From Pseudomonas hormoni (GTDB lineage: Bacteria; Pseudomonadota; Gammaproteobacteria; Pseudomonadales; Pseudomonadaceae): DNA of 64,000 nt. Below are positions 56,521-61,050 of this stretch, in pieces; the stretch's first letter is position 1; every line of letters starts with the position of its first letter. The DNA is taken from the NCBI RefSeq assembly GCF_018502625.1, contig NZ_CP075566.1, forward strand, positions 4,388,001 to 4,452,000, read 5' to 3'. The position numbers and the translations under genes are program-made. The notes beneath the pieces were generated by a model. It saw only the letters and a program-made list of their open reading frames with translations, was not told where the DNA came from and searched no databases.

Positions 56521-57090
56521 ATGACCGAGATTGTTCTTACGCTTATCAGCGCTGCCCTGATCAACAACTTCGTGTTGCACTGGCCGCTGGGCGTCGATCC
56601 GCTGCTTGGCACAGAGCGCCGTCAGGTGCATGCGCTGGGTATCGCGACGACCTGCCTGATGCTGATCGTCGGCATGCTCGGTCATGCCCTCTATCACTGG
56701 CTGCTGGTGCCGCTGGGGTTGAGTTCGCTGGGCCTGTTCGTGTTTTTACCACTGAGCGTTTTGCTGATCGCGCCGCTGCTGACGCTGCTGCCGAAGCTGT
56801 TTTCCACGCTGTCGTTCGAAGGTCTCTGGCCATTACTTCTGGGCAATGCCAGCGTCCTCGGGCTGGCGCTGATCAACGTGCGGGACGACAAGGGATTTTT
56901 CCACGCCACGGCCCTGAGCCTCGGTGCCGGATTGGGTTTCTGGCTGGTGCTGAGTCTGTTCTGCGACTTGCGCCAGCGCACCCTCGATAACGATGTTCCC
57001 CTGCCCTTTCGCGGCCTGCCGATCGACCTGATCGGCGCCGGTTTGATCGCAGTGGCTTTTCTCGGATTCAGCGGACTGATCAAAACATGA
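56521..57090 (+). CDS. rsxA: Rnf/Rsx electron transport complex subunit A, cysteine-less
   Basis: Inner-membrane protein of 189 residues with about six helices, the usual size. It keeps the RsxA frame: [11 protein letters not shown] near the start, [12 protein letters not shown], and [24 protein letters not shown] at the end. In E. coli RsxA two cysteines, in LGLCP and TNCAVLG, are thought to hold a membrane [2Fe-2S] cluster with RsxE. Here both are replaced, by Asp26 (LGVDP) and Ser111 (NASVLG). The stop overlaps rsxB by 4 bp. See the finding on this operon. Confidence 0.9.
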
Positions 57091-58301
57091 GTCTGATTCA
57101 ACGCATCGACGCGCTTTTGCCGCAGACCCAGTGCGGCAAGTGTGGCCACCCCGGGTGCAAGCCGTACGCCGAGGGCATTGCCAGTGGCGAGCCGATCAAC
57201 AAGTGTCCGCCCGGGGGCAGCGAAACCATCTCGGCACTGGCCCAATTGCTGAAAGTACCGGTGCTGGAACTGGACGTCAGTCGCGGTTCGGCCCCGGCGC
57301 AAATCGCCTACATCCGCGAGGCCGAGTGCATTGGTTGCACCAAATGCATTCAGGCCTGTCCGGTAGATGCCATCGTCGGCGCGGCGAAATTGATGCACAC
57401 GGTGATCATCGACGAATGCACCGGTTGCGACCTCTGCGTGGCGCCTTGCCCGGTGGATTGCATCGAGATGCGGCCGTTGCCGCTGGCCACGGTGTTGCCG
57501 ATTGTCGGTGGCCTGGCGTTCAGTCTTGAAGAACAACAGGCGCGTGCCGCCAAACGCAATCACGCACGGCGCCGTTTTGAACAGCGCAATGCGCGTTTGC
57601 ATCGCGAAGAAGAACAGAAACTCGCCGAGCGCCAGGCCCGGGCACATCGTGCGGCGCAGCACACTGAAGTGACGACGCTCGACCCGGTTCAGGCCGCGCT
57701 GGAAAGGGTCCGTGTGCAGAAAGCGGCGAATGCCGATGCGGCGCTGAAGAAAGCCAAGATCGATCTGGCAATGAGCCGCGCGCAACTGAACAAATCGCTC
57801 AAAGCGTTCGGCCATCCGCCGACCTTCGAACAGCAATCGCAACTGGTTGTCCTGCAACAGCAGTTCGAAGCGTGCGAACAAGCCCTGGCGCAATTGGAAA
57901 GCAGTGCACTGCCTACCGCTGCACCCATTGAGCCAGTAAAGGACGCCGAGCTGAAACGAGCGAAGATCCAGCTGGCCATGCGCCGCGCCGAACTCAAGAA
58001 AGCTCAAACCAGCGAAGCGCCGGCCGAGCAAATCGAAGCCTTGCAATGCGCACTCGGCGACGCCGAAAAAGCCCTCCACACCGCCGAGGCTTCGAGCGAA
58101 CAACCTTTACCTGACCTGGCGCGTGTTGAAAAACGTCCCATCGACAACCAGCTTCGCCAGCTGAAAACCGAATTGGCCTACGCTCGCGCCGACGTCAGCA
58201 AACTCGAACGACGCACCGACACACCCGCCGAACTGATGAACAAGGCGCGCGCCCGTCTCCAGGAAGCCGAGCGTCAGGTGGATGCCTATGTCGCCCCTTG
58301 A
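57087..58301 (+). CDS. rsxB: Rnf/Rsx subunit B, anchorless with C-terminal helical repeats
   Basis: Iron-sulfur protein of 404 residues, about twice the usual 190. An Fe-S domain holds Cys16, Cys19, Cys24 and Cys40, then two 4Fe-4S ferredoxin units: Cys81/84/87/91 and Cys111/114/117/121. The usual N-terminal membrane helix is absent; the protein begins directly at [16 protein letters not shown]. After residue 150 come basic helices and three ~50-residue repeats, each led by (L)K.AK..LA..RA.L, as in [14 protein letters not shown] and [14 protein letters not shown]. These resemble the Ala/Lys-rich tail of some RnfC proteins. rsxC itself is missing. Overlaps rsxD by 14 bp. Confidence 0.88.
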
Positions 58302-59276
58302 ATCGGTCGACGAGCGCCTGCAGCAGGCCATGAAGCTGGTGTTGCTGGCCACCGTGCCGGGCATGCTGGTGTTGTTCTGGTTGTATGGCTGGGGTGTATT
58401 GATCAACCTGATGCTGGCCGGCGTGACCGCGCTGGCCGTTGAAGCGACGGTGTTGCAGTTGCGCAAGCGGGAGCTCAAACCCACCTTGAGCGACGGCAGT
58501 GCACTGGTCAGCGCGACGTTGCTGGCCCTGGCCTTGCCGCCGTATTGCCCGTGGTGGCTGACGGTCTGTGCCGCGGCGTTCGCGCTGGTCGGCAAACAGC
58601 TGTATGGCGGCGTCGGAAAAAATCCGTTCAACCCGGCGATGCTCGGTTTTGCCCTGGTGATGGTGACGTTTCCCCAGCAGATGACCCATTGGCCGTCGTC
58701 CCACGGCATGGACCTGCTCGGTGGTTTGCAACAAGTGTTCGGTTTCAGCCTCAGCCAGACGCCGGATGCCTGGGTCCAGGCCACGGCGCTGGACAGCTTG
58801 CGAATCAACAAAAGCCTGACCATGGACGAACTCTTCGCTGGCAATCCGGCCTTCGGTCACTTCGGTGCGCGCGGCGTGGAGTGGGTCAACCTCGCCTTTC
58901 TGGCGGGCGGCGTGTTTCTGCTGCAACGACGGGTGTTCAGCTGGCACGCACCGGTCGGCATGCTTGCCAGCCTGTTCGTCATCAGCCTGCTGTGCTGGAA
59001 CGGCTCGGGGTCCGATTCCCATGGCTCGCCACTGTTTCATCTGCTCACCGGCGCGAGCATGCTGGGTGCGTTCTTTATCGTGACGGAACCGGTGTCGGGC
59101 GCCAAAACCCTGGCGCCCGACTGCTGTTCGGCGCGGGTGTGGGACTGCTGACTTACTTGATTCGTACCTGGGGCGGTTATCCGGACGGCGTGGCGTTTGC
59201 GGTGCTGTTGATGAACCTCTGCGTGCCGGCGCTGGACCGATTTGTCGCGTCGAGACAGGAGCGTGCTGCGCCATGA
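58288..59276 (+). pseudogene. rsxD: Rnf/Rsx subunit D with a one-base frameshift
   Basis: Inner-membrane flavoprotein subunit. The frame from 58288 encodes the N-terminal part to residue about 275 and then stops at 59149-59151 after the foreign tail [10 protein letters not shown]. The missing C-terminus is intact in the -1 frame: [30 protein letters not shown] and VPALDRF, ending at 59274-59276 where rsxG starts. Adding one C to CCC at 59116-59118 restores LAPRLLFGAG and a product of about 330 residues. The FMN-attachment region reads [10 protein letters not shown] rather than SGAT-type. Either a sequencing error or a real mutation. Confidence 0.88.
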
Positions 59277-59884
59277 ACCGAGCGTCGAGCGTGGTGATTC
59301 TGGTCGTGCTGGCAGGCCTGGGGATTGGCGCAACTTACCTTGTGCAGCAGAGCAGCGCGCCACGCATTGCGACTGAACAGCGCCTGATCGACAGCCGTAA
59401 TCTGCTGGACCTGCTGCCCGCTGACAGTTACGACAATCAACCGCTGGAACAACCGTTGCGCCTCGACGATGCCGTGTTGACCAACAGCACATTGCAAGGC
59501 GGCTACCTGGCGACCAAGGCTGGCCAACCCAGCGTCGTTTTGTTGCGCAGTCAGGCATTGGGTTATACGGGCAGTATCGACTTGTTGATCGCCATCGGCG
59601 CAAACGGCAAGTTGGTGGGGATCAAATCCCTCAAGCAATCAGAGACTCCGGGGTTGGGTGCGCGAATCGCCGACTGGCCGAATGCCTGGCTCAACGCCTT
59701 TGCCGGCAAGTCACGAAACGAACCGGCCGACAATGGCTGGGCGTTGAAAAAGGATCAGGGCCAGTTTGATCAGATCGCAGGGGCGACCATCACTTCAAGA
59801 GCCGTGATCAACGCCATCCACGATGCCTTGCGCTACTTCGATGAACATCGGCAACAGTTGATCGGGAACAGTCCCCATGAATAA
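59273..59884 (+). CDS. rsxG: Rnf/Rsx subunit G, FMN-binding
   Basis: Protein of 203 residues with one N-terminal membrane helix and a periplasmic FMN-binding domain. [33 protein letters not shown] is the conserved core, and [13 protein letters not shown] is the flavin-attachment motif, with Ala in place of the usual first Ser/Thr and Thr retained for the phosphoester link. It overlaps the end of rsxD by 4 bp and rsxE by 8 bp. Confidence 0.9.
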
Positions 59885-60386
59885 GTCATCGACGCTGCAG
59901 AACTCGCTGATGCTCGCACCGCTGATTGGCGCCACCGACTCATGGATGACCGCACTTGGCCTGTGGTTGATGTTCATTGTGGTGATCAGTGCCTACGGCG
60001 TCGGCATGGCGGCCCTGCGACCCCGACTTGTTCCGTCTGCCCGACTGTTTGCCGGCATTTTGCTGGCCGCCACGCTGACCAGTTGCGCGGAAATCGCGGC
60101 ACAAGTCTGGTCACTCAAATGGCATCAGCAGGTGGGAATCTATGCCGGACTCATCGCCTTGCAATGTGTCGTTCTTGATCACACGGGCTTCTTCCAGAGC
60201 GCATTGCGCGACCGTCTTCGCCTCTGTGGCCTGTTCGGCGCGCTGATGGTCGGCTTGGGCCTGTTGCGCGAACTTATCGGCAATGGAGGCGTGCACCTGG
60301 CCACTCTGGTCCCCGGTGGATTCATTCTGCTGGGGCTGGTGATCGCTGCCTGGCAGGCCTGGTCCCGCCCGAATCCCTCACACTGA
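59877..60386 (+). CDS. rsxE: Rnf/Rsx subunit E, short form
   Basis: Inner-membrane protein of 169 residues, against about 230 in E. coli. Family traits are LMLAPLIGATDSWMTALGLW, GIYAGLIALQCVVLDHTGFF and LGLLRELIGNGG. Of the two cysteines that complete the [2Fe-2S] site with RsxA, the first is Ala14 here (LAPL for LCPL) and the second, Cys97, remains. The region between the fourth and fifth helices and the C-terminal tail are shortened. Last gene of the rsx operon, 25 bp before nth. Confidence 0.85.
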   Translation: MNKSSTLQNSLMLAPLIGATDSWMTALGLWLMFIVVISAYGVGMAALRPRLVPSARLFAGILLAATLTSCAEIAAQVWSLKWHQQVGIYAGLIALQCVVLDHTGFFQSALRDRLRLCGLFGALMVGLGLLRELIGNGGVHLATLVPGGFILLGLVIAAWQAWSRPNPSH

Positions 60387-60411: not shown

Positions 60412-61050
60412 ATGAATGCTGCAAAACGTCTGGAAATTTTCCGTAGGCTGCATGAAGACAACCCGGAACCGAAGACCGAACTGGCCTACTCCTCGCCGTT
60501 CGAATTGCTGATCTCCGTGATTCTCTCAGCGCAATCGACCGATGTCGGCGTTAACAAGGCCACCGCGAAACTCTACCCGGTGGCCAATACGCCGCAGGCG
60601 ATTTATGCGCTGGGCGTCGAGGGATTGTCGGAACACATCAAGACCATCGGCCTGTTCAACAGCAAGGCAAAAAACGTGATCGAGACGTGTCGCTTGCTGG
60701 TGGAACGTCATGCGGGCGAAGTACCGCAGACCCGCGAAGAGCTGGAAGCGCTGCCCGGCGTTGGCCGTAAAACCGCCAACGTGGTGCTCAACACAGCCTT
60801 TCGCCAACTGACCATGGCCGTGGACACCCACATTTTCCGGGTCAGTAACCGTACCGGCATTGCGCCAGGCAAAAACGTGGTCGAGGTCGAGAAAAAACTG
60901 ATGAAGTTTGTGCCCAAGGAATACCTGCTCGATTCCCATCACTGGCTGATTCTTCACGGACGTTACGTCTGCCTGGCCCGCAAGCCCCGTTGTGGCAGTT
61001 GCCGGATCGAAGACCTGTGCGAATACAAGCACAAGACTTCGGACGATTGA
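60412..61050 (+). CDS. nth: endonuclease III
   Basis: Base-excision repair glycosylase/AP lyase of 212 residues for oxidised pyrimidines. The helix-hairpin-helix ALPGVGRKTANVVLN contains the catalytic Lys, MAVDTHIFRVSNR the catalytic Asp, and the C-terminal cysteines C-x6-C-x2-C-x5-C (CLARKPRCGSCRIEDLC) hold the [4Fe-4S] cluster. GAGGAAA lies upstream. Nth next to rsx genes is a conserved arrangement in gammaproteobacteria. Confidence 0.98.
   Translation: MNAAKRLEIFRRLHEDNPEPKTELAYSSPFELLISVILSAQSTDVGVNKATAKLYPVANTPQAIYALGVEGLSEHIKTIGLFNSKAKNVIETCRLLVERHAGEVPQTREELEALPGVGRKTANVVLNTAFRQLTMAVDTHIFRVSNRTGIAPGKNVVEVEKKLMKFVPKEYLLDSHHWLILHGRYVCLARKPRCGSCRIEDLCEYKHKTSDD

What the first reader, a model, noticed from the sequence alone, without database searches (positions are those of the whole stretch)
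56521..60386. Rsx/Rnf operon without rsxC
The order is rsxA-rsxB-rsxD-rsxG-rsxE-nth with overlapping genes and no room for rsxC. RnfC is the NAD(H)-oxidising subunit in described Rnf complexes, so this complex must take electrons elsewhere or work without NADH. The tight gene overlap and retained Fe-S and FMN domains suggest the rest is still selected. This is the strongest candidate for a remodelled system in the window.
Basis: partly seen in the sequence, partly recalled or inferred. Interest (0 to 1): 0.8.

Follow-up and report, generated by a model that had tools for sequence, protein, structure and literature searches.

The report
Rnf-type operon split into two modules
In this Pseudomonas and many relatives, a membrane electron-transfer machine known from many bacteria has lost its NADH-binding subunit and most of the metal site that carries electrons through the membrane, yet its other parts are mostly kept, which suggests it has been rebuilt for another use.

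Summary
The order rsxA-rsxB-rsxD-rsxG-rsxE-nth without rsxC is real; no rsxC was found elsewhere in the genome. Three corrections. (1) RsxC is not wholly gone: its C-terminal tail is fused to an RsxB that has lost its membrane anchor. (2) RsxA and RsxE have lost three of the four cysteines that hold the intramembrane [2Fe-2S] cluster: each is kept in 0 of 113 C-less loci against 18 of 18 canonical loci. The Rnf electron loop cannot run as described. (3) rsxD in the window is frameshifted, whereas 80 of 80 named relatives have it in one frame. Of 149 genomes of the genus, 19 are canonical, 78 have RsxB and RsxD without RsxC, 33 RsxB' alone, 11 RsxADGE alone, 8 neither. Both FMN threonines are kept in 113 of 113 loci; the flavin transferase ApbE occurs in 108 of 108 genomes with RsxD and 9 of 41 without. 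Best reading: two separable modules, a soluble ferredoxin (B') and a flavin-only membrane core (ADGE), probably a one-way half of the Rnf loop. The half-loop is inference. New variant of a known kind.

The parts
56521..57090 (+). rsxA; both intramembrane [2Fe-2S] cysteines replaced (Asp and Ala here)
   Evidence: PF02508 68 bits; aligned to RnfA of 9eri, 7zc6, 8ahx; 0 of 113 C-less loci keep either Cys, 18 of 18 canonical keep both
57087..58301 (+). rsxB' : anchorless RsxB head with Fe-S domains, fused to an RsxC tail
   Evidence: PF04060, PF14697; RnfB model matched from position 35; no hydrophobic stretch upstream in 0 of 101 A-B'-D-G-E and 0 of 33 B'-only loci, present in 17 of 17 canonical
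57477..58292 (+). part of rsxB' homologous to the C-terminal tail of RsxC (about residues 131-402)
   Evidence: 47% identity over 226 aa to RsxC of L126, E 8e-40; tail profile 169-278 bits on 13 of 13 Pseudomonadaceae RsxC, best shuffle 7.3; position
58282..59151 (+). rsxD, first frame (RnfD model 3-274 of 327), ends early by a frameshift; FMN-binding Thr kept, riboflavin-site Asp is Glu
   Evidence: TIGR01946 286.7 bits
59115..59276 (+). rsxD, C-terminal piece in another frame (RnfD model 277-323), to the stop at 59276
   Evidence: TIGR01946 66.5 bits
59273..59884 (+). rsxG, FMN-binding Thr motif kept
   Evidence: PF04205; TIGR01947 158.7 bits over cut-off
59877..60386 (+). rsxE, short; first intramembrane Cys replaced, second kept
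   Evidence: PF02508 48 bits; aligned to RnfE of 7zc6 and 8ahx
60412..61050 (+). nth (endonuclease III), downstream flank of the locus in all layouts read
   Evidence: TIGR01083 281.6 bits
54327..56378 (+). metG, upstream flank of the locus
   Evidence: ORF of 683 aa; metG-...-nth order in other genomes; name recalled, no family search run on it

Best explanation
The operon is a disassembled Rnf/Rsx system. Shown by sequence: RsxB has lost its membrane anchor and carries the RsxC tail (RsxB'); the NADH/FMN core and Fe-S domain of RsxC are gone; RsxA and RsxE lack three of the four ligands of the intramembrane [2Fe-2S] cluster; the flavinylation threonines of RsxD and RsxG are kept, with the flavin transferase ApbE elsewhere in the genome; RsxB' and the RsxADGE core are found apart in 44 of 149 genomes. 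Inferred: RsxB' works as a soluble three-cluster ferredoxin. RsxADGE works as a flavin-only membrane module that keeps only the RsxD-RsxG half of the Rnf loop (riboflavin and FMN in RsxD, FMN in RsxG). It passes electrons one way between the cytosolic side and a periplasmic partner, without NADH at RsxC and without cluster-coupled ion pumping. In the window's own genome the membrane module may be failing, because rsxD is frameshifted.
For: Tail homology with shuffle, reversal and ORF-background controls and a clean joint after the ferredoxin domain. Anchor: 0 of 101 and 0 of 33 versus 17 of 17 canonical. Cluster ligands: RsxA Cys 0 of 113 and 0 of 113, RsxE first Cys 0 of 113, versus 18 of 18 each in canonical loci. 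FMN threonines 113 of 113 in RsxD and in RsxG. ApbE 108 of 108 with RnfD versus 9 of 41 without; 8 supported independent pairs, 5.7 same and 0 opposite on average, median p 0.031. dN/dS 0.035-0.198. B' and D losses not associated (Fisher p 0.30). A, D, G and E all present in 11 of 11 B-less loci. Precedent for a one-way half loop: PMC8238504 and PMC10979944 (passages).
Against: The half-loop, its direction and any periplasmic partner are not shown; no biochemistry. In 78 of 149 genomes both modules are still together, which may mean that they cooperate. RsxE keeps one cluster Cys in 111 of 113 loci and a second Cys in 98 of 113, so some other metal site is not excluded. dN/dS of rsxA, G and E is several times that of metG and nth. 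Repeated loss (33, 11 and 8 of 149), the window's frameshift and a decayed remnant in G065 fit decay too. Nine of 41 genomes without RsxD still have ApbE.
Confidence: 0.55

Rival explanations
1. One complex with new seating: RsxB' uses the RsxC tail to sit where RsxC sat, on the cytosolic face of RsxD, and exchanges electrons directly with the riboflavin of RsxD. Where both are present the two modules work together.
For: Both in one operon in 78 of 149 genomes; the tail comes from RsxC; rsxB' overlaps rsxD; in Rnf the riboflavin of RnfD hands electrons to RnfC (PMC9588780, passage).
Against: B' without RsxD in 33 and ADGE without B' in 11 of 149 genomes; losses of the two not associated.
Confidence: 0.2
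2. A decaying relic: the operon lost its function with RsxC and is eroding, faster in some lineages than others; the window's rsxD frameshift is one more step.
For: Loss of one or both modules in 52 of 149 genomes; 15 changes of RsxD state on the tree; frameshift in the window; a tail remnant between metG and nth in G065; rsxB' split in 2 of 80 named relatives.
Against: dN/dS 0.035-0.198; FMN threonines 113 of 113; rsxD in one frame in 80 of 80 named relatives; ApbE kept with RsxD.
Confidence: 0.2
3. RsxB' is the reducer of SoxR, as the whole Rsx complex is in E. coli, and that is why it is kept.
For: E. coli RsxABCDGE reduces SoxR (PMC12174285, passage); SoxR is present in the window's genome and in 67 of 78 genomes with B' and RsxD.
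Against: SoxR is kept in 17 of 19 genomes without RsxB and in only 18 of 33 with B' alone; 15 of 19 canonical genomes have no SoxR match at E 1e-40.
Confidence: 0.1
4. A normal Rnf complex whose NADH subunit is supplied from elsewhere, for example an unlinked RnfC or NuoF.
For: NuoF shares a 57-bit similarity with RnfC.
Against: No RnfC found in a one-contig, 100% complete genome; the intramembrane cluster ligands and the RsxB anchor are gone as well.
Confidence: 0.03

Closest known systems
Rnf/Rsx complex (RnfABCDGE; E. coli rsxABCDGE-nth; canonical Pseudomonas rsx locus)
   Same: Gene order apart from rsxC, metG-nth position in Pseudomonas, RsxB Fe-S cysteines, FMN threonines of RsxD and RsxG, ApbE
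   Different: No RsxC NADH/FMN core, RsxB without anchor and with the RsxC tail, three of four intramembrane cluster ligands lost, riboflavin-site Asp changed to Glu
RsxB-RsxC fusions in other Gammaproteobacteria (L178 and L179 of one genus, L226 of another; found here)
   Same: RsxC NADH/FMN core missing at the locus, RsxC C-terminal part fused to RsxB
   Different: They keep the RsxC Fe-S domain; L178 and L179 also keep the anchor, all four cysteines and the Asp. L226 is followed by an unrelated ORF, not rsxD; its cysteines were not tested
Orphan anchorless RsxB beside nth or metG in other families (L218-L225; NCBIfam PRK06991 and PRK08764)
   Same: RsxB head without anchor; a short basic tail in 6 of 8
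   Different: No rsxADGE seen in the stretch; the tail is clearly RsxC-like only in L225 (28 bits; z 8.3), suggestive in L218 and L221, not clear in L219, L222, L223, absent in L220 and L224
NQR/RNF-like two-subunit systems (Meheust 2021, PMC8238504; PMC10979944)
   Same: Proposed one-way electron flow by an RnfD/NqrB-like plus an RnfG/NqrC-like subunit instead of the full loop (passages)
   Different: There RnfD is fused to an NAD-binding domain (PF00175) and its FMN Thr is not conserved; here RsxD has no such domain and keeps the Thr, and RsxA and RsxE are kept

Membership tests
Rnf/Rsx complex | RnfC subunit with NADH/FMN site and two [4Fe-4S] clusters | tested here: not met
   None in the operon or found in the genome; only the tail of RsxC remains, fused to RsxB
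Rnf/Rsx complex | RnfB anchored by an N-terminal transmembrane helix | tested here: not met
   Hydrophobic stretch in 17 of 17 canonical, 0 of 101 A-B'-D-G-E and 0 of 33 B'-only loci
Rnf/Rsx complex | Four cysteines of RnfA and RnfE holding the intramembrane [2Fe-2S] cluster | tested here: not met
   Three of four absent in 113 of 113 loci; fourth kept in 111 of 113; canonical 18 of 18 at each
Rnf/Rsx complex | RnfB Fe-S cysteines | tested here: met
   12 cysteines in 101-102 of 102 and 33 of 33 loci
Rnf/Rsx complex | Covalent FMN sites in RnfG and RnfD, with ApbE | tested here: met
   Thr 113 of 113 in each; ApbE in the own genome at 271.6 bits to PF02424 (PRK10461 258.6 bits is under its 498 cut-off)
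Rnf/Rsx complex | Riboflavin-site Asn and Asp of RnfD | tested here: inconclusive
   Asn 113 of 113; Asp replaced by Glu in 112 of 113, the other being the broken G034 copy
Rnf/Rsx complex | Ferredoxin:NAD+ oxidoreductase activity with ion transport | not testable with these tools
   Needs biochemistry
NQR/RNF-like two-subunit system | RnfD/NqrB domain fused to an NAD-binding domain PF00175 | tested here: not met
   Pfam finds only PF03116 in both rsxD pieces
Orphan RsxB PRK06991 (NF005415) | Score over the curated cut-off | tested here: not met
   248.7 against 281 bits, though matched over residues 2-267
NQR (NqrABCDEF) | NqrA and NqrF subunits | not tested
   Not searched; no second RnfD/NqrB match in the own genome

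The most novel reading that the evidence does not exclude
RsxADGE of many Pseudomonas species is a separate class of membrane machine derived from Rnf: a four-subunit core with no Fe-S cluster in the membrane and, in 11 of 149 genomes, no cytosolic Fe-S subunit of its own. It carries two covalent FMNs and passes electrons across the membrane by flavins alone, or uses the RsxA/RsxE alternating-access fold for transport with the flavins as a switch. The same ancestor released a free ferredoxin (RsxB') that kept the RsxC tail and now serves cytosolic partners.
Probability: 0.3. Interest if true: 0.8.

Novelty: new variant of a known kind. Interest (0 to 1): 0.62.

Why it matters
[quoted passage not shown] woodii enzyme (PMC11889175, passage). 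Here is a natural clade that has lost three of them in 113 of 113 loci read, yet keeps both flavin sites and shows purifying selection. That is a natural experiment on what RnfA/E, RnfG and RnfD can do without the Fe-S relay, and on whether halves of Rnf can work alone. It also means that names such as 'RnfABCDGE type electron transport complex' may mislead in most Pseudomonas species of this sample (130 of 149 genomes are not canonical). The tail of RsxC has no known function that I know of (recall); its survival after the rest of RsxC was lost suggests that it has one.

Tried and rejected
RsxC elsewhere: PF13375 and TIGR01945 in the own genome; the hits are a carboxylase-like ORF and NuoF. 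The tail match as mere composition: rejected by 1,500 shuffles, 15 reversed tails and an 18,076-ORF background; against the distant E. coli RsxC tail the window tail is not above its best shuffle (86 against 86, z 3.1), so the homology rests on Pseudomonadaceae RsxC. A programmed frameshift in rsxD: rejected, since 80 of 80 named relatives have one frame. That loss of RsxC entails loss of the cluster: rejected, L178 and L179 lack the RsxC core at the locus and keep all four cysteines. SoxR as obligate partner of B': not supported. One origin of all anchorless RsxB: unresolved; in the head tree the Pseudomonas B' clade (82) groups with one orphan of another family of the same order (L223, 92), the rest is poorly supported. 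The MetG+Nth tree mixes canonical and C-less genomes in one clade of 17 while RsxD separates them; order of events unresolved. A B'-before-A order in L158 and L069 and D-before-A in L134 is an artefact of sorting stop-to-stop frames. No structure prediction and no fold search was run.

Caveats on counts. The 18-19 canonical loci are 12 of the genus, one other genus of the family (L184), four other Gammaproteobacteria (L185-L188), and two extra Rnf loci (L130, L168; not scored for every gene; L168 or L130-type rows explain the one canonical RsxD without the FMN Thr, not checked which). Genus tally: loci were read for 12 of 19 canonical, 22 of 78, 33 of 33, 11 of 11 and 8 of 8 genomes; the other 63 rest on the family matches. 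In one search only 20 candidates per genome were scored, so an RnfB elsewhere in the 11 B-less genomes is not strictly excluded. In one search only 6 candidates per genome were scored, so its RnfC absences are weak. Two ApbE-positive, RnfD-negative genomes (G001, G147) carry NqrB. The anchor test left out L130 and L064, where the motif was not found. MetG+Nth tree: 6 loci left out for too little sequence, 16 of 80 named loci used. RsxD tree: 71 rows, L130, L168, L181 and L216 left out.

Literature: ten searches listed no title or abstract on a C-less Rsx operon, an RsxB-RsxC fusion or loss of these cysteines. Passages only were read in PMC12174285, PMC11889175, PMC9588780, PMC8238504, PMC10979944 and PMC4014512. 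Most subscription papers are not in the library.
Full report
What is there. The window (G000:C1:4388001-4452000 of a 6.48 Mb one-contig genome) holds metG, then rsxA 56521-57090, rsxB 57087-58301, rsxD from 58282, rsxG 59273-59884, rsxE 59877-60386 and nth 60412-61050. The nearest named relatives by RsxD are Pseudomonas (96% to P. migulae NBRC 103157). No rsxC was found in the operon or elsewhere: PF13375 gives one weak place (22.4 bits, 25.9 with neighbours against a cut-off of 25.6, 26 of 26 candidates scored) in a carboxylase-like ORF, and TIGR01945 at most 57 bits against 245.95 (10 of 19 candidates scored), at NuoF.

The window's rsxD is broken. Its first frame covers RnfD model positions 3-274 of 327; positions 277-323 lie in another frame. 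In 80 of 80 named relatives both pieces lie in one frame, so this is not a programmed shift. The only other split rsxD met is G034 (L216), whose metG and RsxB' tail are split too, as in a poor assembly. Against four relatives the window shows a net one-base length difference, inside a short perfect inverted repeat (arms 59097-59104 and 59111-59118, read). Intact copies exist; mutation and sequencing error cannot be told apart here.

RsxC left its tail behind. Residues 180-398 of the window RsxB align to the C-terminal tail of a canonical Pseudomonas RsxC (47% identity over 226 aa, E 8e-40). A profile of RsxB' tails, which covers residues about 131-402 of the window protein, scores 169-278 bits on 13 of 13 Pseudomonadaceae RsxC proteins; the best of 1,500 shuffled tails reaches 7.3 bits and none of 15 reversed tails is reported. 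Among 18,076 ORFs, apart from RsxB, RsxC and two loose tail ORFs of split rsxB' genes (L216, L065), the best is a decayed remnant between metG and nth of G065 (56.8 bits), the next 11.6. The joint lies just after the last ferredoxin CP motif of both parents. A hydrophobic anchor precedes the RsxB head in 17 of 17 canonical loci and in 0 of 101 A-B'-D-G-E and 0 of 33 B'-only loci, while the 12 cluster cysteines are kept in 101-102 of 102 and 33 of 33.

The intramembrane cluster site is mostly gone. Published structures place four invariant cysteines between RnfA and RnfE (Cys25 and Cys113 of RnfA, Cys26 and Cys109 of RnfE; PMC9588780, passage), now taken to hold a [2Fe-2S] cluster (PMC12174285, passage). 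Electrons run from RnfB through that cluster to RnfG, RnfD and RnfC, and variants without it are inactive (PMC11889175, passages). Aligned to solved chains and across loci, the two RsxA cysteines are present in 18 of 18 and 18 of 18 canonical loci but 0 of 113 and 0 of 113 C-less loci; the first RsxE cysteine in 18 of 18 versus 0 of 113; the second in 18 of 18 versus 111 of 113. The riboflavin-site Asp of RnfD is Asp in 19 of 19 canonical and Glu in 112 of 113 C-less loci, the exception being the broken G034. The FMN threonines of RsxD and RsxG and the riboflavin-site Asn are kept in 113 of 113.

It is widespread and modular. Of 149 genomes of the genus, 19 have a canonical RnfC with B and D, 78 have RnfB and RnfD without it, 33 RnfB without RnfD, 11 RnfD without RnfB, and 8 neither; six genomes outside the 19, G022 among them, have a further RnfC of other kinds elsewhere. 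Loci were read for 12, 22, 33, 11 and 8 of these, and they lie between metG and nth wherever the stretch held both flanks. In the 11 B-less loci A, D, G and E are all present. Losses of B' and RsxD are not associated (Fisher p 0.30; independent pairs). C-less RsxD proteins form one clade (48 rows, 100/100), sister to canonical Pseudomonadaceae RsxD (99/97). The MetG+Nth tree mixes five A-B'-D-G-E and two B'-only genomes with ten canonical ones in one clade, so the locus was probably exchanged or sorted; this is unresolved.

It is selected. In the window plus 44 relatives the median pairwise dN/dS is 0.166 for rsxA, 0.035 for the rsxB head, 0.109 for the tail, 0.093 for rsxD, 0.166 for rsxG and 0.198 for rsxE, against 0.048 for metG and 0.026 for nth (Nei-Gojobori, pairs with dS 0.1-1.2). 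ApbE, which attaches the FMN, is present in 108 of 108 genomes with RnfD and in 9 of 41 without, two of the nine carrying NqrB. On the tree, 8 supported independent pairs agree (5.7 same, 0 opposite, 2.3 no difference on average; median p 0.031, range 0.016-0.25). The own genome has ApbE (271.6 bits to PF02424).

Beyond the genus. In a class-wide sample of 239 genomes RnfD passes its cut-off in 148 and RnfC in 136 (few candidates scored). Three loci in two other families hold another solution: RsxB fused to the RsxC ferredoxin domain and tail, without the RsxC NADH/FMN core at the locus (L178 and L179 of one genus, L226). L178 and L179 keep the anchor, all four cysteines and the Asp and are followed by D, G, E and nth; L226 is followed by an unrelated ORF. 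Orphan anchorless RsxB proteins lie near nth or metG in eight further loci (L218-L225); two have no tail, and of the six tails only that of L225 is clearly RsxC-like.

How it most likely works. Shown by sequence: a protein with the cysteines of three [4Fe-4S] clusters, no anchor and a long tail; and a membrane core with two FMN sites and without the four-cysteine cluster. Inferred: the core can no longer take electrons from RsxB across RsxA/RsxE, so only the RsxD-RsxG half of the Rnf loop is left; it would carry electrons one way between the cytosolic face and a periplasmic partner, as proposed for the two-subunit NQR/RNF-like systems (PMC8238504, PMC10979944, passages). RsxB' may serve it where both are present, perhaps from the seat of RsxC, but must also do something alone. 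SoxR does not explain it: SoxR is found in 17 of 19 genomes without RsxB and in only 4 of 19 canonical ones.

Membership and novelty. By tested features it is not a member of the Rnf complex as defined (RnfC, RnfB anchor and cluster ligands not met), though it descends from one and may work in part like one. Ten literature searches listed no description of it (see Tried and rejected). I rate it a new variant of a known kind: surprising to specialists because of the lost invariant cysteines, and directly testable.

Noticed in passing
L178:4247-5221, L179:3037-4053, L226:3650-4588: RsxB fused to the RsxC ferredoxin domain and tail, without the RsxC NADH/FMN core, in other gammaproteobacterial families; looks like an independent, intermediate kind of fusion.
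   Followed up: partly
L191:2251-2742 (- strand; G065): Between metG and nth of a genome with neither RsxB nor RsxD, an ORF with a remnant of the RsxB' tail (56.8 bits): a trace of decay.
   Followed up: no
L216 (G034:C1:5640000-5650000): metG, the RsxB' tail and rsxD are all split by frame changes in this assembly, as if it carried many sequence errors.
   Followed up: no
L064 and L065 (Pseudomonas mandelii 6A1; Pseudomonas sp. TH31): rsxB' is split into two frames in these 2 of 80 named relatives.
   Followed up: no
window 59097-59118: A perfect 8-base inverted repeat with a 6-base loop at the rsxD frameshift (read); such places are prone to slippage or to sequencing error (recall).
   Followed up: no
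149 genus genomes: SoxR is rare in canonical Rsx genomes (4 of 19) and common in the others (102 of 130), the reverse of what the E. coli role of Rsx would suggest.
   Followed up: partly
G093:C31:165793-168888, also G021, G057, G072, G103: A second, different RnfC-RnfD locus (RnfC about 373-387 bits) with ApbE close by in genomes that also carry the C-less or B-less rsx locus.
   Followed up: no
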